From the NCBI GenBank assembly GCA_011374975.1, contig DRNU01000133.1:1-39991 (forward strand): a stretch of 39,991 nucleotides of DNA, given 5' to 3'. This document shows, in pieces, positions 10,858 to 22,177 of the stretch. Both the position numbers and the translations under genes were made by a program. The first letter of the stretch is position 1. Each line of letters opens with the position of its first letter. The DNA comes from Gammaproteobacteria bacterium. Its GTDB lineage: Bacteria; Pseudomonadota; Gammaproteobacteria; DSM-19610. Under the pieces are notes generated by a model. The model was not told the origin of the DNA. It worked only from the letters and a program-made list of their open reading frames with translations, and searched no databases.

Positions 10858-11112
10858 ATGAATGCACAGGATGTCGCATGGGACGATTTCCGCACGGTGC
10901 TGGCGGTGTGCCGCGAAGGCACGCTTTCCGGCGCCGCCCGCGTGCTGGGGGTTAATCACTCGACGGTGTTCCGGCGGATTAATGCGCTTGAAGACAGGCT
11001 GGATGTTCGATTATTCGAGCGGCTTCCCGAAGGCTATGCAAGGAATGAGGGAGGCAGCAGATGCTATGAATACCCGCCGGACCGACGCGTGTTTTACACC
11101 ACAGACACTTGA
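10858..11112 (+). pseudogene. Truncated LysR-type regulator (HTH part only)
   Basis: The first 60 residues are a good LysR winged HTH: DDFRTVLAVCREGTLSGAAR, then NHSTVFRRINALEDRLDV, then LFERLPEGYA. Straight after this the frame runs into 24 unrelated residues and stops, where a real LysR protein continues for about 230 more with the linker helix and effector domain. The break coincides with the start of the DUF2461 gene, which overlaps the fragment's last 47 bases in another frame. This looks like a deletion or insertion that joined the two. A short DNA-binding peptide could still be made, but dimerisation parts are missing. Confidence 0.85.
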
Positions 11113-12482: not shown

Positions 12483-12573
12483 GAACTTGTCCGCCATGCA
12501 TGATCAGAACTTTGGCTCCTCGCCATGTAAGGTGCCTGGCGTCACAGCCATTCAGTAAATGGCACACACTTCG

Positions 12574-12723
12574 TCAAACCCGAAGCGAGGCCCGCGCCAT
12601 GACCTGCATCAGGCTGGCAGACTGCTGGATGTCGAGGCGGTCTCTCAGCTCGGGTTTCTGGGTGGCAATGCCGGCCGGGCAATTGTTGCTGTGGCAGATC
12701 CGTGCTGCCACGCAGCCAATCGT
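12574..12723 (-). pseudogene. Glutamate-synthase-like FMN/Fe-S domain fragment
   Basis: Read leftwards, this piece gives [20 protein letters not shown], then [15 protein letters not shown]. In glutamate synthase large subunits and related FMN-binding glutamate-synthase-family proteins, the end of the FMN domain reads about GC..AR.CH.N.CP.GIATQ.P.LR..., with the cysteines binding a 3Fe-4S cluster. Only about 50 residues survive, then a stop codon. The rest of the enzyme is missing. The fragment is back-to-back with a LysR fragment on the other strand at about 12724. Confidence 0.75.
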
Positions 12724-12724
12724 C

Positions 12725-12901
12725 GGCGATGCTGTCCGCGCCGGCGACCTCGACATTATCCTGCCCGCTTACCAGCCGCCGAAGATTAATATCTATGCGG
12801 TGTATGCTTCCCGGAAACGTTTGTCAGCCAAAGTGCGCACGTTTATTGATTTTGCAGTTGCACAGATCGGTGAACAGCCGGCATGGGATCTTGGATTTTG
12901 A
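12725..12901 (+). pseudogene. LysR-type regulator C-terminal fragment
   Basis: The rightward frame keeps the last 57 residues of a LysR effector domain: [20 protein letters not shown], then IYAVYASRKRLSAKVRTFID, ending with a natural stop. That is the usual end of the CrgA/DsdC-like subgroup (LPxYxPPxxxIYAVYxSRRxLSAKVRxFIDF). The HTH and most of the effector domain are missing; upstream the sequence changes abruptly into the oppositely oriented glutamate-synthase fragment. It is from a different LysR subgroup than the HTH fragment at 10858, so the two are not halves of one gene. Confidence 0.82.
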
Positions 12902-13106: not shown

Positions 13107-13841
13107 ATGTTAGAAATGCTTGTTGTCTCGATTTCCGAAGAAGCTGATGACACCGGAGTGACTGACCCGATTGATGAGGCGGATGTCTTCCGTCTCTCCC
13201 TTTTTACCGGCCTGAAACCCGGAACGGGCAGCGGCGCTAACAGGATCACCGACTATCTTGCACATCACATTGCACGTATGCCCGGCGACCTGCGCAGTCA
13301 TGTCCAGCGCATCAACATGCACCTTGCAATACAGGATGCCGGCGGCCTGTACGGTGCCTTGCTGGACCTGTTCATTGTTCTTAACGACGGGGGACTGGCC
13401 CTGCGCAAACGCATACTGGACAGTGCGCGGCCGGTACTGAAGTTGCCGATGTACCAGGCCATGAATGCCGTGCTGGAGCGCGGTATCGATGCCACAGACA
13501 GAATGCCGCTGTCGAGAACCTCCATGCTGAGCAAGGGGCTGCAGGCAAGTAACCGGCTGGTCAGCCGCACGGATAATGCTGCAACCACGACACGCGACCT
13601 GTTGCAGGAAGCCCGCGAACATATTGAATACGGCCAGATCGAACTGGCAAGGGATCTGCTCGAGCAGGGTGTGCTGGAAAACCCCGAACGCGTCGAGCTG
13701 CAACAGGATCTCCTGGAAATCTATGCATCGACCCGTGACCGGGAACGGTTCTCGGTCATGCGCCGGAGGCTGGATGCGAAAAACGTTGCGGCAGGTGAAG
13801 CCTGGTCAGCACTGGAAACGATACTGGAAGAGGACGGGTAA
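13107..13841 (+). CDS. FimV-like TPR protein, first gene of GTPase operon
   Basis: About 244 residues; the start may be ATG 13107 or 13116, as no strong ribosome site decides. It begins with an acidic stretch and DPIDEADVFR, and near 178-215 has LLQEAREHIEYGQIELARDL, followed by ENPERVELQQDLLEIYASTR. This is very like the FimV/HubP C-terminal TPR units (DPLAEADVYLAYGRYxQAxxLL ... NPExxELxxKLLEVY). It lacks FimV's LysM and membrane parts and has no signal peptide, so it should be cytoplasmic. FimV proteins are polar landmarks that bind partners through this domain. It is followed by the receiver-like gene after only 3 bases. A scaffold for the downstream GTPase is inferred. Confidence 0.65.
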   Translation: MLEMLVVSISEEADDTGVTDPIDEADVFRLSLFTGLKPGTGSGANRITDYLAHHIARMPGDLRSHVQRINMHLAIQDAGGLYGALLDLFIVLNDGGLALRKRILDSARPVLKLPMYQAMNAVLERGIDATDRMPLSRTSMLSKGLQASNRLVSRTDNAATTTRDLLQEAREHIEYGQIELARDLLEQGVLENPERVELQQDLLEIYASTRDRERFSVMRRRLDAKNVAAGEAWSALETILEEDG

Positions 13842-13844
13842 AGG

Positions 13845-15026
13845 ATGCCGGACAAAAAGGAAGTTGCGCTGCGGGTAGCGGCCATCGGAATGGACCAGCG
13901 CTCGCTGAGCACACTGCAGATGTTTTTCAAAATCCCCTGCAGGAACAGCTGCCAGTTGGCGGAAGAGGATGCGGCGGAAGTTGCCATGCTGGACATGGAC
14001 GCAATCGATGCGGGGAAACTCTTCGAGGAACACAGGGAGCGATTCCCCGATCGGCCGGTGATTGTTCTGTCCCTGTCCGGGCAGGCAATCAAGGGCACCA
14101 TCAATGTACGCAAGCCCCTGTCGGTTGCCCTGATGCTGGAAGCGATTGCACAGGCACGCAAACAGCTGGCGACAGGCGGGGCCGGGAAACAGACACCGGA
14201 CCCGGTGCCGGACAGCAGCACCGACAGCAATGTGGTACCCCTCAAGCAGCAGGAAAAGGTCCAGGTATCCCGCGTGGGCTCGTCCGCTGCTGCCCACAAG
14301 GCGGCACTGCAACTGGACGAGAAGGAATTCAGGAGCCTTGTCGGTTCGGCTCCGGACATCGATCCTGGCAACGCCGACCAGCGCGTGGGTGTCTGTTTCA
14401 ACCCGGATGACTATATGTTCGGGTATATCTGCAAGGTATTCGCGGAGGCCCGTAAAAGCGGGTCGGTGATCAGGCTGGAAGATTCGTGGTCCACGCTCAC
14501 CGTGTTCCCCGGGCAGGACAGGGTGGCTACCGAACTGAAGGATCCGCAATTACGCACGGTGTACGTCATGTCGAACAAACCGAAGGATATGCGCCAGTCC
14601 ATACTCGGCACCGGCCAGGCGGAGCGGGAATACCAGGTCATGGAAGAAAAGCAGGCTTTGCAGGATATGGATGCCTTTCTGTGGAAGCTTGCGCTCTGGA
14701 CTTCGCGCGGCCGGATACCGGACGGAACCAGTCTGTCGATACCGGTATTCCTGCGCCACTGGCCGAACATGACCCGCCTTCTGCTACCCCCGCACGCACT
14801 GCGTATCACGGCACTGTGGGCGCACCAGCCGCACTCGCTGATACAGACTGCCAGTGCTCTCAGAATTCCACAGCGCTTTGTCTTCGCCTTCTACAGTGCG
14901 GCACTGGCGCTCGACCTGGTGGGTCCGTGCCGGCGGTCGTCCGACATGCTGGTGGAACCATCGACGGCTGCCTCTGAAAACCGCAGTGTACTGGCGCGTA
15001 TTCTGCAACGCCTGAAGATCGCATGA
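13845..15026 (+). CDS. Receiver-like protein of 393 residues in GTPase operon
   Basis: Residues about 8-110 resemble a receiver fold: LRVAAIGMDQRS at strand 1, VAMLDMDAIDA where the phospho-Asp would sit, RPVIVLSLSG at strand 4, and NVRKPLSVALMLEAIAQARK with the Lys-Pro pair before the last helix. The acidic pocket at the start is missing, so it may be a pseudo-receiver. A proline/serine linker (about 120-140) leads to a C-terminal region of about 240 residues that I do not recognise. It contains W/F-rich segments and a helical end. The gene starts 3 bases after the FimV-like gene and is 48 bases from the GTPase. A response-regulator-like adaptor is plausible. Confidence 0.6.
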   Translation: MPDKKEVALRVAAIGMDQRSLSTLQMFFKIPCRNSCQLAEEDAAEVAMLDMDAIDAGKLFEEHRERFPDRPVIVLSLSGQAIKGTINVRKPLSVALMLEAIAQARKQLATGGAGKQTPDPVPDSSTDSNVVPLKQQEKVQVSRVGSSAAAHKAALQLDEKEFRSLVGSAPDIDPGNADQRVGVCFNPDDYMFGYICKVFAEARKSGSVIRLEDSWSTLTVFPGQDRVATELKDPQLRTVYVMSNKPKDMRQSILGTGQAEREYQVMEEKQALQDMDAFLWKLALWTSRGRIPDGTSLSIPVFLRHWPNMTRLLLPPHALRITALWAHQPHSLIQTASALRIPQRFVFAFYSAALALDLVGPCRRSSDMLVEPSTAASENRSVLARILQRLKIA

Positions 15027-15074
15027 AGCGGTCCGGCTAACCATTATTACACCTCGACGAAAAGGGACAGATTC

Positions 15075-15611
15075 GTGGCGAACTACAAGATCATCTTCAC
15101 CGGCCCCGTGGGCGCGGGTAAAACCACGGCCATTGCATCGATCAGCGACGTGCCACCGGTGAGTACCGATGCCACGGCCAGTGACATGACCCGCAAGCGC
15201 AAGAATGCAACCACTGTCGCTATGGACTACGGGGTCCTGAAACTGGATAAGGGCGATGCCCTGCATCTCTACGGAACCCCCGGCCAGGAACGCTTCGACT
15301 TCATGTGGGACATTCTCACGGAGGGCGGTATCGGCCTGGTGTTGCTGCTGGACAACTCGCGCAACAACCCGTTCCAGGACCTGCAGTTCTTCCTGCGCAC
15401 GTTCGAGGATTTCATCGGCAGGACCGGCGTCGCTATCGGCGTTACCCAGATGGATATCAAGGCTCAGCCGACCATCAGGGACTACCGGCAGGAACTCATG
15501 ACAAACGGCCTGAAACCACCGGTGTTTGCCGTGGATGCGAGAACACACAATGACGTGTCCCTGCTGGTGCAGGCGCTGTTATTTTCAATGGACCCGGTAC
15601 TGGTGGACTGA
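15075..15611 (+). CDS. MglA-like small Ras-type GTPase
   Basis: A 178-residue protein with a GTG start; AAAGGGA lies upstream. The P-loop is GPVGAGKTT (10-18), Thr residues for switch I lie at 31-35, and switch II is YGTPGQERF (66-74), with Gln71 in the catalytic position. The base-recognition motif is TQMD (124-127) in place of NKxD. This is the compact GTPase family of MglA and of the Streptomyces conservon CvnD proteins. MglA proteins set cell polarity in gliding bacteria and are switched off by roadblock proteins such as MglB. A roadblock gene lies two genes downstream, so a cognate pair is likely. The next gene begins one base after the stop. Confidence 0.9.
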   Translation: MANYKIIFTGPVGAGKTTAIASISDVPPVSTDATASDMTRKRKNATTVAMDYGVLKLDKGDALHLYGTPGQERFDFMWDILTEGGIGLVLLLDNSRNNPFQDLQFFLRTFEDFIGRTGVAIGVTQMDIKAQPTIRDYRQELMTNGLKPPVFAVDARTHNDVSLLVQALLFSMDPVLVD

Positions 15612-15612
15612 C

Positions 15613-16257
15613 GTGGCAAATTTCCGTCTCATCGAAGACCAGTATATCTCGCCCACGCCGGCCGGCGCCTACTATGCCGTATCTGCGCCGCAGAAAGATG
15701 ATTCACGGAGCCTCATCAGCCACCTGTTGCAGCAGGAAAGCAACCCGCTGCTGACCATGCGGAACCTGGTCACCTGGAGCAACGCGGCTGACGAAGACAG
15801 CGCCAGGGAGCTGCTGTACCACATCCAGAAACTGGGCTGGGTACAGGGCAGCGACAGCCCGGAGACAGCACCCGCCGGCGCACTGGAAGAGACCCTGCCG
15901 CAACTGCTGGGGCCGCTTTCCGGTGATGGCAAGGCCCTGCTGGCGGACAGCCAGGGCTTCTATCTGGCCTCGCGGGGTTTCCCGCACGAAACCGCCGAAG
16001 AACTGTCGGCACTGAGCGCAGACCTGGCGTCCCTGTATACACGCCACCAGGGCGTGCTGGACGGGAACCTCGGTCTGGGCAGCAGTGCCTGGGCGGTGGT
16101 GGATGCGGCGGGAAACAGCCAGATCGGTTTCTGGCCCCTGTACATCGGCGAGCAGCGTTTCGTACTGGCCATGGCAGGTTTGCCACACCTCAACCAGCCG
16201 GAGCTGACGCGACTGATATGGGCACTGAACAAACGCTATGGCACCAGTACTGCGTGA
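15613..16257 (+). CDS. Winged-helix-like plus roadblock-like protein in GTPase operon
   Basis: The start is GTG 15613, one base after the GTPase stop, so translation is probably coupled; 214 residues. Residues about 33-80 (SLISHLLQQESNPLLTMRNL, then LLYHIQKLGWVQG) look like a small winged-helix unit. From about 110 the pattern KALLADSQGFYLASRGFPHE, then ALSADLASLY, then WAVVDAAGNSQIGFWPL, then VLAMAG follows the strand-helix-strand order of roadblock/LC7 domains. It would be a divergent second roadblock partner for the GTPase, or a fused MglB-like subunit. The assignment is by pattern only. Confidence 0.6.
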   Translation: MANFRLIEDQYISPTPAGAYYAVSAPQKDDSRSLISHLLQQESNPLLTMRNLVTWSNAADEDSARELLYHIQKLGWVQGSDSPETAPAGALEETLPQLLGPLSGDGKALLADSQGFYLASRGFPHETAEELSALSADLASLYTRHQGVLDGNLGLGSSAWAVVDAAGNSQIGFWPLYIGEQRFVLAMAGLPHLNQPELTRLIWALNKRYGTSTA

Positions 16258-16319
16258 ACTGACGCGCAGGCCTGACCCATGGATGAATCGATGGAACATT
16301 GTAACAAGGGGACGCAGTA

Positions 16320-16682
16320 ATGAGAGAAGACATGCTCCGCTCGATCCTGAGCGAACTCAACGGAACCTCGGCTGATATCGAGGCCTCGGCAATCATTTCC
16401 ACGGACGGCCTCATCATGGCGGCCCAGCTACCGGCTGAACTCGACGAGGACCGCGTGGGCGCGATGAGTGCCGCCATGCTGTCGCTCGGCGACCGTACCT
16501 CCCAGGAACTCGCCCGCGGCGGACTGGAGCAGGTGCTGGTCAAGGGTGACAACGGCTATGTACTCATGACACATGCCGGGGGCGATGCGGTGGTGACCGT
16601 CATGGCAAAGCCCAATGCAAAGCTCGGCCTTATCTTTCTCGACGTCAAACGCGCGTCGGAAAACATCGCCAAGCTGATCTAG
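16320..16682 (+). CDS. Roadblock/LC7-domain protein (MglB-like)
   Basis: A 120-residue single-domain protein, the normal size. The core pattern is present: LRSILSELNGTSADIEASAI, then ISTDGLIMAAQLP, then RVGAMSAAMLSLGDRTSQEL, then GYVLMTHAGGDAVVTVMA and LGLIFLDVKRASENI. Roadblock proteins dimerise and act on Ras-type GTPases; MglB is the GTPase-activating partner of MglA. The GTPase two genes upstream is the obvious partner. AGGGGA lies before the ATG. The gene is 62 bases after its predecessor in the same direction. Confidence 0.92.
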   Translation: MREDMLRSILSELNGTSADIEASAIISTDGLIMAAQLPAELDEDRVGAMSAAMLSLGDRTSQELARGGLEQVLVKGDNGYVLMTHAGGDAVVTVMAKPNAKLGLIFLDVKRASENIAKLI

Positions 16683-16757
16683 ACACTATCCGCGTCGCAT
16701 CCGGTGCGACCGGTATCCCGGGCACATGCCCGGATGCTGCAGGGGAGGTATTTCCGA

Positions 16758-17252
16758 ATGGCAAGCACACAACGACTGGCGGACATGGAACCCGGGGACA
16801 TCGTCGGGGAGTACCAGGAAACGACGACCGAATACCATGATGGTACGAGCCGCAGGATTCTTTACACCGAGGTCGAGAGCCCGTTTCCCGATGGCCGTCT
16901 CATTGTTTCACGCACCGACCCGGAGGGTATTATCACCCACACCAACCGGTCCTTCGTCGAGATGTCGGGCTTCACCGAGGAAGAACTCATCGGTGTGCCG
17001 CACTATATCCTGCGCCACCCCGATATGCCGCCGGCAGCCTTCAAGGACCTGTGGGATACCATACGGGCGGGCAAAAAATGGCATGGCTATGTGAAAAACC
17101 TGCGCAAGGACGGCGGCTTCTACTGGGTATACGCCACCGTTATCCCGAACGTGCGCAATAACGAAGTTGCGGGTTTTACCTCAGTCCGCAGAAAACCCTC
17201 CCGCAGGAAAGTGGAGGAATGCGCCGCACTCTATCCAACCCTGTTCCAATGA
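16758..17252 (+). CDS. Aer-type PAS domain protein
   Basis: A 164-residue protein; GGGGAGG lies upstream of ATG 16758, which decides the start over the upstream ATG. Residues 46-145 match the PAS domain of the aerotaxis receptor Aer: SRTDPEGIITHTNRSF, then MSGFTEEELIG, then RHPDMP (86-91), then W108, then KNLRKDGGFYWVYA (113-126). The Trp and the Lys-Asn pair lie where Aer binds FAD. Unlike Aer there is no HAMP or methyl-accepting part, so the unit is a free sensor, with an N-terminal extension of about 45 residues. A redox or oxygen input to the GTPase module is inferred. It precedes the PhnD-like gene by 13 bases. Confidence 0.88.
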   Translation: MASTQRLADMEPGDIVGEYQETTTEYHDGTSRRILYTEVESPFPDGRLIVSRTDPEGIITHTNRSFVEMSGFTEEELIGVPHYILRHPDMPPAAFKDLWDTIRAGKKWHGYVKNLRKDGGFYWVYATVIPNVRNNEVAGFTSVRRKPSRRKVEECAALYPTLFQ

Positions 17253-17265
17253 GCCGGAGACAACA

Positions 17266-18012
17266 ATGCCCTTGAATCTGACAGTAAGCCCGGACTTCAC
17301 GCCGGACCATATTTCGGGCTGGTATATCTTCAACACCTGGCTGCAGAAGGCGCTGGACGAGCAAATACACCTCGAGCTGTACGACGACTTTGCCGCCCAG
17401 CGCAAGGCGGTGATGGACGACAGCATCGATCTGATTTATGCCAATCCCTACGATGCCGCCCTGCTGGTCCGGGAAAAGAACTTCCGGCCGCTGGTCAAGC
17501 CGACGAACAAGGTCGACGAGGCCATCGTTGCCGTGCAGCAGGACCACGCCGCACAATGCGTGGAGGACCTTCAGCCCGGCATCCGTATCGCGTCCACCGA
17601 CGACCCCGATGTACACCTGATGGGCATGATTATGCTGGAGCCGGCCGACCTGGATAAGGAGAACACCGAACGCCAGGTCTGCGACACCTATGTGCTGGTT
17701 GCCAAAGAACTGATTCGTGGCGGCTGCGAGGTGGGTTTCTTCCTGGACGAGGCTTACCAGGACCTGTCCAACATGGTGCGCAGTCAGTTGCGCCCGCTGG
17801 TCAGCAGCCGCATACACATCATCCATCATGCGCTTATGGTGGGCCCCCGGCTGGCGGAACGCCACGATGAAATCCAGCAGCTGCTGATCGCCATGCAGGC
17901 GGACGACAAGGACAGGGGGGTGCTGGAAAGCCTTGGACTGGATGGCTGGGAAGCGGTCGAAAACGAGGACATGGAGTTCATGATTGATCTCATGGACACG
18001 CTGGAGGGGTGA
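17266..18012 (+). CDS. PhnD-like periplasmic-binding-fold protein without signal peptide
   Basis: A 248-residue protein starting MPLNLTVSPDFTPDHISGWY, with AGCCGGAGA before the ATG. The layout fits the phosphate/phosphonate (PhnD-type) binding fold: GWYIFNTWLQKAL helix, then DDFAAQRKAVMDDSIDLIYA, then NPYDAALLVREK, then IASTDDPDVHLMGM and a helical end. PhnD proteins are normally exported to the periplasm; here there is no signal peptide and the reading frame upstream is in another gene, so the protein should stay in the cytoplasm. As the last gene of the operon it may sense a small anionic ligand, or have become a protein-binding module. The family call rests on pattern. Confidence 0.72.
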   Translation: MPLNLTVSPDFTPDHISGWYIFNTWLQKALDEQIHLELYDDFAAQRKAVMDDSIDLIYANPYDAALLVREKNFRPLVKPTNKVDEAIVAVQQDHAAQCVEDLQPGIRIASTDDPDVHLMGMIMLEPADLDKENTERQVCDTYVLVAKELIRGGCEVGFFLDEAYQDLSNMVRSQLRPLVSSRIHIIHHALMVGPRLAERHDEIQQLLIAMQADDKDRGVLESLGLDGWEAVENEDMEFMIDLMDTLEG

Positions 18013-18724: not shown

Positions 18725-21700
18725 TCAGCCCGCCGCCTCAAGGGCGATTGATTTTGCACGCCTGAAATCGCTTTTACCGGTCCCCAGCTTTGGAATGGCA
18801 TCTACCCTGACCAGCCTGGCAGGACGCATCAGCGGAGGCATGTTTGCGTCGGCAATCAACGCTGTCAGCGAAGATTCGTCGATTTCCCCGGAAAACAGTA
18901 AAACGACTTTTTCACCCTTTTTCCCGTCCGGTATGGCGGTGGCCAGAACCTCGACCTCTTCGGGAATCACATGGGCCAGGCTTTCTTCAATGGCCCCTAG
19001 ACTGATCATTTCTCCGCCGATTTTGGCAAACCGGGAATAGCGGTCCACAATGGTCAGGAAGCCGTCTTCATCCAGGTGGCCTTTATCCCCGGATTTGTAC
19101 CACCGGTGACCGTCAATTTCGACGATGGACTCCCGGGTTTTTTCCGGATCGTTCAGGTACCCCAGCATGACCTGGGTGCCGCCGATAAGAATTAACCCGT
19201 CTTCATTAGACGGTAGTGGCTGCATCGTGTCGGGGTCCACGATCTTGAAGCTGCTGCCTGGCAGTGGCAGGCCCACAGTACCCGGCTTGCTGCCGGTCTG
19301 GACATGCCAGCTGTCCGTGTCCAGGCGGTCCGGAATGTTCACGCCGGCAACCGGTGTTGTCTCTGTGGTGCCATACCCTTCATAGACGGGTTTCCTGAAT
19401 TTTTCCTCGAACCCGGCGCGGACTTCCGGGTTCAGGCGCTCGGCGCCGGAGACCACGATGCGCAATGACTCCAGCATTAATGGATGAACACGGTTGTTAC
19501 GTACATATAAGCGAAGGAAAGTCGATGTTCCGCACAACACCGTTACCTTGAACCGGCTGATCGCCTTTGCAATATTCAGCACATCGGTCGGGTCGGGGTG
19601 GAACACGGCCGGTATGCCCTCGACCAGGGGTAACAGGCCGGTGACGGTGAGGCCGAAGGCGTGGAACTGCGGCAGACTGCCCATGACAGCATCGTTTTCC
19701 TGGATATCGAGCACATCAGACACCTGCTTGATGTTGCCCATGATGTTCCTGTGGCTCAGCACCACGCCTTTGGGGGACCCTTCGCTGCCGCTTGAGAAAA
19801 GAATGGCCGCGGGATCGTTGATGGAAACTCTTTTCCCGAACAGGGTGTACAAGACCTGGGCGGGCAGTACTTTCACCAGTGTGTACAGGAACAGTTTTTT
19901 CATACCGGTGACTTCGTCCTTCAGATCCTCGAGATAACAGACCCGGGTTTTCTCAAGCAGGGTATCCAGGACAATACCCTTCTGCCCCAGTTTTTTAATA
20001 AACCGCCTGGAGGTGTAAATAGTGCGTATCCCGGCCTGGTCGACTGCCGCTGACAGGGCATCGATACTGGCAGTGTAGTTCAGGTTGATGACGGTTTTTC
20101 CCAGCAGAAGAATGCTCATGTTGGTGAGCATGCCCGCGCTGCTGGTCGGCAGAAGAAGACCGATATTGCTTTCCGGGCTGCGTTTTTTAATCAGGCCGGC
20201 AAAGGCTATCGATGCCGTCAGTGCCTTATACCCGGTTAAAGGGGTGTCGCCCAGGGCATCAGTCATGCACAGACTGCTGCCCTGTTTTTTCACGGTCTGT
20301 ATCCAGGACAGGGGCAGGGGTTCCAGTGTCTCGGTGTAACCCTGCCAGGCATCTATGGAAAGATCGAATACGTGCTTCTTGACTTCATCGGCTTTGGCCT
20401 GGATGGATATTGGCGGGCCAAAAGCGACGATAATATCGCGCCGCAGACCGCGGCGGCTGACAAGTTTCATGCGCTCGCTGGAACGTGAAAAACGGCTGCC
20501 CCATAATCCCCTCAGGTAGAAGGGGACAATGACCGCGTCAGCCCCTTCCGCCGCTTTTTCAAAACCCCGTTTGAATTCGCCCAGCTGGCCGTTGCGGCTG
20601 ATCGCCCCTTCGGGGAACAGGCATACCACTTCACCCGCGTTGAGCAGCGCATTGATCTGCTTCAGCGCCTCTTTGCTGTGGCCCCTGGCAATGGGTACCA
20701 CGCCGAAGAAATTCAGGAACCACTTGAGGTACCAGCGCTGGTAATAACTCCTGTGCATGACGAAACGTACCGGGCGGGGTGACGCAATCTGCACCATTGC
20801 CCAGTCCAGCCAGCTGACATGGTTGCCGAGCAGCAGCACACCACCCTGGCCGGGAAGGTTTTCAAAACCCTGGACCTTGATGCGGTAGCGCCCGGCAAAC
20901 AGCCGGCCGACCAGGAAGCGGATCATGGATTGCGGAAGGTGATAGATCGTGTAGATGGCACCGGCCAGTGCAATCACGGTGATAATATTGAACAGTCCCA
21001 GGCTGTCTATCCCGGCCCGGGCCACGGCGATAGTCAGGCCAAGGAAGGTCAGCATAACGACGTTCTGCACCCAGTTATTACCTGCCAGAACGGTGCCCAG
21101 CTGCTCTTCCCTGGCCTGGAACTGGATAATGGAGTTCAGGGGTACGACAAACATACCGCCAAAGAAGCCCAGCGCGAGGATATCCAGCGCCATTTGCGGG
21201 GCTGAAGTCAGCCCGGAAATGGCGAACAGGCTGGCAACAATGCCCACGGCGCCGACGGCTACCAGGCCTGTCTCGATGTGGTGCCTGGAGAACTTGCCGG
21301 CCACCAGGGAACCCAGCACGATGCCGATACCGGCACAGGCCAGGATGCCCTGGATCACCACCGTGTTGGTTTCACCCAGAACATCCTTGGCGAAAGCGGG
21401 GAACGAGGCGAGTACGACCTGTGAGATGCCCCAGAATACCGAAAGGCCGACGATCGAGAGCCAGATGTTCTGGTCACTCCAGACGGTTTTCAGGTTGGTT
21501 TTAAGGAGCTGGCCCTTGAAGTACGGCTTCCACGCAAACGACGCTTCAGTCGCAGGCTTGTGGGTGAGGGGCAGGCGGAAAGTCAGTATCAACTCGATGA
21601 CCGAACAAATAACCAGCACCCAGCCCAGGGGTGCAATCATCGGCAGCAGCTCGGCTTCACTGGCATATACCTGTCCTTTCAGACCCTGCTCGAACAGCAC

Positions 21701-22177
21701 GGAAAAGAAAAAGACACCGGACAGGATAGCCACCATGGTTGTGGCCTGTACGACGGCATTCATAGGAGCCAGACGTTCCTGGCCGACCAGTTCCCTGATA
21801 AAGCCGTACTTCGCCGGCGAATAAAACGCGCTTTGCACGGCCAGCAGAAAGGTCATAACAAAGGCAATCTCAAACCAGCCCTTGTAATAGGACAGCGTGA
21901 TCAACAGTGTCAGTACCACCGCCGCCGCGGCACTGAGTTTCATGACGAGCGGTTTCCGGTAGCGGTCTGAAATAAAGCCCGACGGGCTGAACAGTAATAC
22001 GAAGGGCAGCAGAATCAGGCCGTTGACGATGGCAGTCAGAATAATCTGGGTTTCGCCGTCGTAAATTTTGAACACGGTGTTCTGGATCACGATCTTGTGC
22101 CCGAGGTCTACAAAGGCATTCAGAAAGGCGATCAGCACAAAGGGGAAAAAGCCGGCGATACGATACAGTTTGTCCAT
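18725..22177 (-). CDS. aas: LplT-PlsC-acyl-ACP synthetase fusion (Aas type)
   Basis: A 1150-residue protein with three parts. Residues 1-410 are an MFS transporter of the LplT type, with about 12 hydrophobic segments. Residues about 430-640 are a PlsC acyltransferase with GNHVSWLD (HX4D motif, near 450) and FPEGAISR (near 520). From about 650 there is an AMP-binding ligase with LFSSGSEGSPKGVVLSHRN (near 794) and later YGTTETTP and YKSGDKGHLDEDG. In E. coli LplT and Aas are separate: LplT flips lyso-phospholipids inwards and Aas reacylates them. Here one chain would do import, acyl activation and acyl transfer. AGGAA precedes the ATG. It is divergent from an HTH regulator 136 bases away. The call is strong. 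Confidence 0.95.
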   Translation of the reverse strand: MDKLYRIAGFFPFVLIAFLNAFVDLGHKIVIQNTVFKIYDGETQIILTAIVNGLILLPFVLLFSPSGFISDRYRKPLVMKLSAAAAVVLTLLITLSYYKGWFEIAFVMTFLLAVQSAFYSPAKYGFIRELVGQERLAPMNAVVQATTMVAILSGVFFFSVLFEQGLKGQVYASEAELLPMIAPLGWVLVICSVIELILTFRLPLTHKPATEASFAWKPYFKGQLLKTNLKTVWSDQNIWLSIVGLSVFWGISQVVLASFPAFAKDVLGETNTVVIQGILACAGIGIVLGSLVAGKFSRHHIETGLVAVGAVGIVASLFAISGLTSAPQMALDILALGFFGGMFVVPLNSIIQFQAREEQLGTVLAGNNWVQNVVMLTFLGLTIAVARAGIDSLGLFNIITVIALAGAIYTIYHLPQSMIRFLVGRLFAGRYRIKVQGFENLPGQGGVLLLGNHVSWLDWAMVQIASPRPVRFVMHRSYYQRWYLKWFLNFFGVVPIARGHSKEALKQINALLNAGEVVCLFPEGAISRNGQLGEFKRGFEKAAEGADAVIVPFYLRGLWGSRFSRSSERMKLVSRRGLRRDIIVAFGPPISIQAKADEVKKHVFDLSIDAWQGYTETLEPLPLSWIQTVKKQGSSLCMTDALGDTPLTGYKALTASIAFAGLIKKRSPESNIGLLLPTSSAGMLTNMSILLLGKTVINLNYTASIDALSAAVDQAGIRTIYTSRRFIKKLGQKGIVLDTLLEKTRVCYLEDLKDEVTGMKKLFLYTLVKVLPAQVLYTLFGKRVSINDPAAILFSSGSEGSPKGVVLSHRNIMGNIKQVSDVLDIQENDAVMGSLPQFHAFGLTVTGLLPLVEGIPAVFHPDPTDVLNIAKAISRFKVTVLCGTSTFLRLYVRNNRVHPLMLESLRIVVSGAERLNPEVRAGFEEKFRKPVYEGYGTTETTPVAGVNIPDRLDTDSWHVQTGSKPGTVGLPLPGSSFKIVDPDTMQPLPSNEDGLILIGGTQVMLGYLNDPEKTRESIVEIDGHRWYKSGDKGHLDEDGFLTIVDRYSRFAKIGGEMISLGAIEESLAHVIPEEVEVLATAIPDGKKGEKVVLLFSGEIDESSLTALIADANMPPLMRPARLVRVDAIPKLGTGKSDFRRAKSIALEAAG

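What the first reader, a model, noticed from the sequence alone, without database searches (positions are those of the whole stretch)
13107..18012. Seven-gene GTPase module: FimV-like, receiver-like, MglA-like, two roadblock-like, Aer-PAS and PhnD-like
The genes are tightly packed in one direction (gaps of 3, 48, 1, 62, 75 and 13 bases). MglA and roadblock proteins are a known polarity switch, FimV is a known polar landmark, Aer-PAS senses redox and PhnD-type folds bind small anions. All products lack export signals. This would be a cytoplasmic sensor that sets a small GTPase in response to redox state and a ligand. I do not know a described system with this full set.
Basis: partly seen in the sequence, partly recalled or inferred. 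Interest (0 to 1): 0.85.

Follow-up and report, generated by a model that had tools for sequence, protein, structure and literature searches.

The report
GTPase operon with redox-type sensors
A tightly packed set of seven bacterial genes, found in the same order in many methane- and sulfur-oxidising bacteria, joins a Ras-like molecular switch to small soluble proteins that look like oxygen or redox sensors, and may let cells adjust surface movement to oxygen without the usual chemotaxis machinery.

Summary
The seven genes and their spacing are real. The core (receiver-like protein, Ras-like GTPase, two roadblock proteins) is a known but uncharacterised type: MglA Group 3, reported from Neisseria and Xanthomonas (PMC4316618, passages) and called the mgl operon in Snodgrassella (PMC11112851, passages). 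The full order occurs in 37 of 80 named relatives, 35 of 61 with enough flank. The front TPR gene and the sensor cassette were not described in what I read. The PAS protein is Aer-type with FAD-site residues conserved. The cytoplasmic PhnD-like protein travels with it (45 loci with both, none with PAS alone, of 63). In relatives other stand-alone sensors sit inside or beside the module: protoglobin in 9 loci, ODP 6, CZB 6, hemerythrin 2. Best reading: soluble redox and ligand sensors tune roadblock control of an MglA-type switch acting on cell-pole or pilus machinery. 'FimV-like' for gene 1 is not supported.

The parts
13107..13841 (+). Gene A: cytoplasmic TPR-type helical protein (244 aa); proposed effector or scaffold, in the role of M. 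xanthus SgmX (inference)
   Evidence: Sub-threshold TPR matches; profile match in 68 of 80 loci; 9 of the 68, all from Neisseriales, Burkholderiales or Hydrogenophilus-type records, are long forms with a membrane-like segment near the N-terminus; FimV_Cterm in 1 of 39
13845..15026 (+). Gene B: receiver-like domain, variable linker, C-terminal region read as winged-helix-like, basic C-terminal helix; the 'conserved protein of unknown function' of MglA Group 3
   Evidence: Model pLDDT 86.6; receiver structures dominate the Foldseek list; D52, K90 and P91 in 46 of 46, D50 in 43 of 46, usual acidic pair of strand 1 missing
15075..15611 (+). Gene C: MglA-type small GTPase, GTG start
   Evidence: Pfam; P-loop GPVGAGKTT, G3 GTPGQ, G4 TQMD without lysine, G5 DAR; solved MglA structures among the profile hits, below eukaryotic Rab/Sec4 structures
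15613..16257 (+). Gene D: protein with an N-terminal winged-helix-like region and a roadblock domain, GTG start; distant MglB paralogue
   Evidence: Model pLDDT 93.4; Foldseek top hits MglB of T. thermophilus and M. xanthus, prob 1.00
16320..16682 (+). Gene E: canonical roadblock (MglB) protein
   Evidence: Robl_LC7 1.2e-14; the only Robl_LC7 match at E <= 0.001 in the genome
16758..17252 (+). Gene F: stand-alone Aer-type PAS protein, probable FAD redox sensor
   Evidence: Best solved-structure match is an aerotaxis receptor PAS domain, 8dik, 5e-35 alone and 9e-45 by profile; R86, H87, W99, N63, N114 in 29 of 29 and D89 in 27 of 29
17266..18012 (+). Gene G: cytoplasmic PhnD/PtxB-fold protein without export-like segment
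   Evidence: Phosphonate-bd 9e-41; PtxB 5o2j 1e-7 by profile; no membrane-like segment in any of 55 profile matches in 50 loci

Best explanation
It is an MglA Group 3 G-protein operon with an input cassette. Shown from sequence: a small GTPase (C), a canonical roadblock protein (E), a second roadblock protein with a winged-helix-like N-terminus (D), a receiver-like adaptor (B), a TPR-type protein (A), an Aer-type PAS protein (F) and a cytoplasmic periplasmic-binding-protein-fold protein (G), encoded together and conserved together. Inferred: D and E form the GTPase regulator, as MglB with RomY do in Myxococcus. The FAD state of F and the ligand state of G change the GAP or GEF activity of D/E by direct contact. 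The GTP form of C acts through the TPR protein A and the adaptor B on polar machinery, most likely type IV pili, so that surface movement or pilus activity follows redox or oxygen conditions.
For: Core: neighbourhood, G4/G5 motifs and match with Neisseriaceae. Sensor coupling: F is Aer-type with the flavin-site residues conserved; F does not occur without G (45 both, 0 F only, 2 G only, 16 neither, of 63 loci). Other soluble sensors sit in the module or at its edge: protoglobin in 9 loci, all nine over the Pfam cut-off; CZB 7 genes in 6 loci, all seven over it; ODP in 6, all six over it; hemerythrin in 2. 51 of 61 loci with enough flank have at least one O2, redox or zinc-type sensor. Two Thermus plasmid operons pair a related GTPase and roadblock gene with protoglobin genes. 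A natural globin-roadblock fusion exists in Methylacidiphilum (PMC4476040, passages). Polarity link: 11 of 11 scanned downstream neighbours match FimV_core, and 13 of 80 loci have a bactofilin gene nearby, all 13 over the Pfam cut-off; both sets lie in one clade (90/87). An orphan mglB allele of Snodgrassella alters soft-agar spreading attributed to pili (PMC11112851, passages). MglA-GTP acts through the TPR protein SgmX (PMC7519303, abstract).
Against: No biochemistry. Pilus linkage is not demonstrated: pilM in 58 of 63 GTPase-positive against 54 of 80 GTPase-negative genomes, but 58 of 62 against 50 of 58 once genomes under 2 Mb are removed (p 0.23); 5 positives lack a pilM match. Nine of 61 well-flanked loci carry no recognised sensor, including the three Neisseriaceae, so the core can work without the cassette. 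The FimV/bactofilin linkage is probably one ancestral event. The host's nearest relatives lack the GTPase. B has a winged-helix-like C-terminal region, and PMC4316618 reads that as transcriptional control. The background control for the extra sensors used profiles built from the hits, and the Aer-PAS profile also matched larger PAS proteins away from the module in L085, L088, L100 and L106.
Confidence: 0.5

Rival explanations
1. Transcriptional output: the receiver/winged-helix protein B is a DNA-binding regulator whose activity is gated by the GTPase, so the operon is a redox-responsive gene regulator rather than a polarity switch.
For: PMC4316618 (passages) predicted a receiver plus winged-helix DNA-binding fold for this protein and suggested gene regulation; B matches in 77 of 80 loci; D also starts with a winged-helix-like region in its model.
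Against: The 50 Foldseek rows shown for B are mostly receiver-only alignments, and none shows a full-length DNA-binding regulator fitted well; B ends in a conserved basic hydrophobic helix (44 of 46), which I read as a membrane or protein contact; FimV and bactofilin neighbours point to the cell pole.
Confidence: 0.25
2. c-di-GMP output: the switch controls a diguanylate cyclase or phosphodiesterase, and pili or biofilm change only through c-di-GMP.
For: In four of five Thermus/Deinococcus plasmid operons the genes after the roadblock include PAS-GGDEF (L007, GGDEF 2e-20), EAL (L131), HD-domain (L130) or HD-GYP (L132); the fifth (L129) has a LuxR-type gene. The Acinetobacter plasmid hit has an EAL gene some 3.5 kb away, beyond transposases.
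Against: No c-di-GMP family is among the 25 families shown, of 82 found, for 59 scanned neighbours of the named loci (a capped list); none of the seven window proteins matches a GGDEF or EAL family.
Confidence: 0.12
3. F and G are separate regulators that merely share the transcript, for example a redox and a nutrient sensor acting on other partners.
For: F and G are missing from many loci that keep the core (16 of 63); the F+G label changes at least 6 times on the GTPase tree (where some 'missing' rows are cut contigs).
Against: F and G come and go as a pair next to the roadblock end, and sensors of similar type stand at the same module where they are missing or beside them.
Confidence: 0.13

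Closest known systems
MglA Group 3 systems (Wuichet and Sogaard-Andersen, PMC4316618; abstract, section 12 and passages seen)
   Same: Receiver/winged-helix protein, small GTPase often lacking the G4 lysine and with G5 DAR, one or two coupled MglB proteins, almost only beta/gamma-proteobacteria
   Different: What I read does not mention the TPR gene A, the Aer-PAS and PhnD genes, or other sensor genes beside the core; supplementary tables were not seen
mgl operon of Snodgrassella communis (PMC11112851, passages)
   Same: A-B-C-D-E order in Snodgrassella gandavensis L114; mglB-1 and mglB-2 coupled to mglA; TnSeq and spreading data point to colonisation and pili
   Different: No F or G match in L114; the studied mutation was in an orphan mglB-3 far from the operon
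MglA/MglB/RomR/RomX/RomY/SgmX polarity module of Myxococcus xanthus (PMC9481161 passages, PMC7519303 abstract)
   Same: Ras-like GTPase, roadblock GAP that needs a partner, receiver-domain protein, TPR effector linked to PilB
   Different: Input from the Frz chemosensory system rather than soluble sensors encoded beside the GTPase; MglA Group 1
Conservons (CvnA-D, MglA Group 2, Actinobacteria)
   Same: Sensor plus roadblock plus GTPase in one operon
   Different: The sensor is a histidine kinase-like protein; no receiver, PAS-only or PhnD gene in the four-gene core (PMC4316618 passages; PMC13343842 seen only as start of abstract in a listing)
Aer aerotaxis receptor
   Same: Same PAS subfamily (8dik, 5e-35)
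   Different: Here the PAS domain stands alone, without membrane anchor or chemoreceptor signalling domain
HGbRL globin-roadblock fusion of Methylacidiphilum (PMC4476040, passages)
   Same: A globin sensor joined to a roadblock domain in a methanotroph
   Different: Covalent fusion, not an operon of separate sensors

Membership tests
MglA family Group 3 | Small GTPase with G4 often lacking the lysine and G5 DAR | tested here: met
   Window G4 TQMD, G5 DAR; D154 and R156 invariant and A155 in at least 90% of 20 sequences
MglA family Group 3 | Upstream receiver/winged-helix protein of unknown function and one or two coupled MglB proteins | tested here: met
MglA family Group 3 | Falls in the Group 3 clade of the MglA tree | tested here: inconclusive
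   My tree puts the window with 81 other rows (80 named loci, Neisseriaceae among them, and one Acinetobacter row), apart from four Thermus/Deinococcus rows; no Group 1, 2 or 4 reference was included
MglB / roadblock | Robl_LC7 domain over the curated cut-off, or roadblock fold | tested here: met
   E: 54 bits against cut-off 23. D: below cut-off by sequence, MglB-type fold by model
FimV/HubP (gene A) | FimV_core domain and FimV_Cterm motif | tested here: not met
   Window A: no NCBIfam match at E <= 1; FimV_Cterm in 1 of 39 members at 0.006. A FimV_core gene lies elsewhere in the genome
Response-regulator receiver (gene B) | Receiver fold with acidic residue after strand 3 and Lys after strand 5 | tested here: met
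   Fold; D52 and K90 46 of 46, D50 43 of 46
Response-regulator receiver (gene B) | Acidic pair of strand 1 that binds Mg | tested here: not met
   Positions 15 and 16 are G in 38 and M in 27 of 46; position 17 is D in 26 of 46. Ordinary phosphorylation is therefore doubtful
Aer-type PAS | Closest solved relative is Aer, with conserved FAD-site residues | tested here: met
   Which Aer residues matter for FAD is recalled, not from a call
Aer-type PAS | Binds FAD and senses redox | not testable with these tools
   Needs purified protein
PhnD/PtxB binding proteins | Phosphonate-bd fold | tested here: met
PhnD/PtxB binding proteins | Export signal and ABC transporter partner | tested here: not met
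   No membrane-like segment (hydropathy only); no transporter family among the seven
Type IV pilus regulators | Gene presence tracks pilus genes across genomes | tested here: inconclusive
   58/63 against 54/80, not significant after a size filter

The most novel reading that the evidence does not exclude
A CheA-independent energy-taxis system: soluble input domains otherwise used by chemoreceptors (Aer PAS, protoglobin, ODP, CZB, hemerythrin), plus a cytoplasmic binding-protein-fold sensor, act in trans as exchangeable plug-ins on a Ras-like GTPase and its roadblock regulators, and steer pilus polarity by oxygen and redox.
Probability: 0.35. Interest if true: 0.87.

Novelty: new variant of a known kind. 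Interest (0 to 1): 0.68.

Why it matters
[quoted passage not shown] This operon offers candidate sensors encoded beside the switch, with a likely cofactor (FAD), and natural replacements in relatives that make the sensor slot testable by comparison. If right, it is a second way, besides chemoreceptor arrays, to connect oxygen or redox state to surface behaviour in methanotrophs, filamentous sulfur bacteria and relatives.

Tried and rejected
Gene A as FimV: rejected as a membership claim; kept only as a TPR-type protein. B's C-terminal half as homologue of the Thermus/Deinococcus upstream proteins (two annotated DUF4388, three hypothetical): profile comparison gave probability 1.2-2.9% for B or D regions (E 0.016-0.044), so homology is not shown, although the tails look alike. 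Pilus co-occurrence as proof of output: dropped after the size filter (the counts at 2 Mb and over were taken by hand from the tables). That test used the 63 positives other than G000, and 80 of the 101 negatives sampled from 301: G037, G071 and those after G311 were left out. Bin contamination: the flanking gene 18725-22177 is 79% identical over 788 residues to a same-genus genome, so the contig fits the genus. Recent import by composition: G+C of the module is slightly above its flanks, not decisive. GTPase tree for a donor: the window is unresolved. Large roadblock frames as PAS or PhnD fusions: one 535-aa frame is an AAA ATPase fusion; the 367-aa one looks like a long frame overlapping the neighbouring gene.

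Extra sensors were assigned from lists made. In the tree, 'noFG' includes cut contigs. One G-only locus (L081) owes this to a longer protein upstream of A.
Full report
WHAT IS THERE. The window is contig C133 of a 3.3 Mb draft genome (88.8% complete, 4.45% contamination), judged gamma-proteobacterial from its relatives; I did not determine its taxon. A convergent PEGA/SHOCT gene follows. I call the genes A to G.

DOMAINS. C is a small GTPase (ATP_bind_1 1e-12, Ras 1.5e-5) with P-loop GPVGAGKTT, G3 GTPGQ, G4 TQMD and G5 DAR; among solved structures its profile ranks eukaryotic Rab/Sec4 first and MglA lower in the list. E is a canonical roadblock protein (54 bits, cut-off 23) and the only Robl_LC7 match at E <= 0.001 in its genome. 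D is weak by sequence (10 of 40 members match Robl_LC7 at E <= 0.01), but its model (pLDDT 93.4) shows a winged-helix-like N-terminus and a roadblock fold whose best Foldseek hits are MglB of Thermus and Myxococcus (prob 1.00). B has no Pfam match over a cut-off; its model (pLDDT 86.6) starts with a receiver domain, with D52, K90 and P91 in 46 of 46 sequences and D50 in 43, but without the usual acidic pair. F is an Aer-type PAS protein: the best solved match is an aerotaxis receptor PAS domain, 8dik, at 5e-35 and 9e-45 by profile. Residues matching the Aer flavin site are conserved (R86, H87, W99 in 29 of 29; D89 in 27 of 29); their link to FAD in Aer is recalled. G has the PhnD/PtxB fold and no export-like segment. 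A is a TPR-type protein; FimV_Cterm matches 1 of 39 members. Nine of 68 A matches are long forms with a membrane-like segment near the N-terminus.

CONSERVATION. No full-length GTPase match is found in the 19 other genomes of the order that are held (16 same genus, 3 same family; two short weak matches lie inside much longer frames), yet 64 of 369 genomes sampled from the class, own included, have it at 1e-15. With profiles built from the window genes, 37 of 80 have A-B-C-D-E-F-G in order, and 35 of 61 with enough flank; A-B-C-D-E alone occurs in 20 of 80, and 14 of 61. Carriers of the full set include Methylococcales, Thiothrix, Halothiobacillus and Sphaerotilus; Neisseriaceae and Chromobacteriaceae have A to E. 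F and G are a unit: of 63 loci with E and 2.2 kb beyond it, 45 have both, none has F alone, 2 have G alone and 16 have neither.

THE SENSOR SLOT. Relatives carry further stand-alone sensors inside the module or beside it. Protoglobin occurs in 9 loci (all nine match PF11563, 2e-28 to 3e-20). CZB occurs as 7 genes in 6 loci (all seven match PF13682, 7e-15 to 3e-11), inside the module or within 175 bases. ODP, whose Treponema namesake is a di-iron oxygen sensor for chemotaxis (PMC7666581, passages), occurs in 6 loci, 5-41 bases upstream of A or overlapping its called start (all six match PF19583, 3e-74 to 1e-67). Hemerythrin occurs in 2, about 250 bases upstream of A, and an unknown cysteine-containing protein in 4. 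Profiles of these families found no other copy in the 1.08 Mb held; they were built from the hits, so this is a limited control, and the Aer-PAS profile did match larger PAS proteins elsewhere in four loci. In all, 51 of 61 well-flanked loci carry at least one O2, redox or zinc-type sensor; 9 carry no recognised sensor. Hydrogenophilus L077 has repeated roadblock and PhnD genes (E-G-E-G-G). Of five Thermus/Deinococcus plasmid operons with a related GTPase and roadblock, two (both Thermus) have protoglobin genes, and four go on to PAS-GGDEF, EAL, HD or HD-GYP genes. That Aer PAS, protoglobin, CZB and hemerythrin are also chemoreceptor inputs is partly recalled.

OUTPUT. Eleven downstream neighbours in Thiotrichales and Sphaerotilus/Burkholderiaceae loci match FimV_core (11 of 11) and FimV_Cterm (10 of 11); a twelfth was found by profile (L078). 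Bactofilin lies nearby in 13 of 80 loci, all 13 confirmed by Pfam: 4 on the same strand, adjacent or overlapping the called module, and 9 on the other strand 350-850 bases away; another reverse-strand match, in L058, lies 2.8 kb off and was not scanned. The 13 and the 12 FimV loci belong to one clade of the GTPase tree (90/87), so this is probably one ancestral linkage. The host genome has two pilT-family genes over the cut-off and its own FimV_core gene elsewhere. The pilM test: 58 of 63 GTPase-positive against 54 of 80 negative genomes (p 0.0004), falling to 58 of 62 against 50 of 58 (p 0.23) without genomes under 2 Mb. So pilus control rests on analogy, neighbours and the Snodgrassella work, not on my statistics.

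MECHANISM. Shown: composition, order, folds, sensor exchange between loci. Inferred: F and G (or their replacements) modulate the D/E roadblock pair; the GTP form of C works through A and B at the pole. Analogies: MglB needs RomY for sufficient GAP activity in vivo (PMC9481161, passages); MglA-GTP binds the TPR protein SgmX, which helps place PilB (PMC7519303, abstract); a globin-roadblock fusion exists (PMC4476040, passages). Rivals are transcriptional output through B, c-di-GMP output, and unlinked action of F and G.

WHAT IS KNOWN. PMC4316618 (abstract, section 12 and passages) defines MglA Group 3, calls its neighbourhoods highly conserved, and lists the receiver/winged-helix protein, MglA and one or two MglB. 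PMC11112851 (passages) describes the mgl operon in Snodgrassella. Ten paper searches ran; nine bore on this question (98 was on ODP), and their listings showed no paper on the Aer-PAS/PhnD cassette or the sensor exchange. Six papers were opened. The library lacks most subscription journals, and supplements were not readable. The core is therefore known; the cassette and the exchangeable sensor slot look new. Verdict: new variant of a known kind.

Noticed in passing
13845-15026 (B) and upstream genes of L007, L129-L132: B ends in a basic hydrophobic helix of the type LLxRILxRLR in 44 of 46 aligned members; five of five Thermus/Deinococcus proteins encoded just before a related GTPase end alike, though profile comparison shows no homology. 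The pattern is loose: 18 of 80 GTPase tails also match.
   Followed up: partly
10858-11112 and 12500-12901: The start of a LysR-type regulator (by eye) and the end of one (LysR_substrate 5e-5, below cut-off) lie apart, with a DUF2461-like frame (by eye) and a MAPEG gene between: possibly a disrupted gene.
   Followed up: partly
L050, L057, L059, L060, L061 downstream of G: Related genes directly follow the PhnD-like gene in five methanotroph loci; the one scanned (L050) is a 5'-nucleotidase (PF06189 1e-133), a possible hint to the ligand.
   Followed up: partly
L134:1968-5861: In a genome with no GTPase match at 1e-15, an AAA ATPase is fused to a roadblock domain and followed by an ODP gene.
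   Followed up: partly
L005 (Neisseria gonorrhoeae): The A-E neighbourhood is present, but the GTPase match lies in two reading frames and A and B in pieces, so this copy looks broken.
   Followed up: no
L072:10145-10576, L083:9252-9725, L087:9177-9737, L101:2853-3341: A protein of about 140-190 aa with conserved cysteines (two scanned, no Pfam match over a cut-off) stands before the roadblock gene in Halothiobacillus-type loci; a further sensor candidate.
   Followed up: partly
L077:5544-8914: Hydrogenophilus has an E-G-E-G-G array of roadblock and PhnD-like genes, suggesting that these two proteins work together.
   Followed up: no
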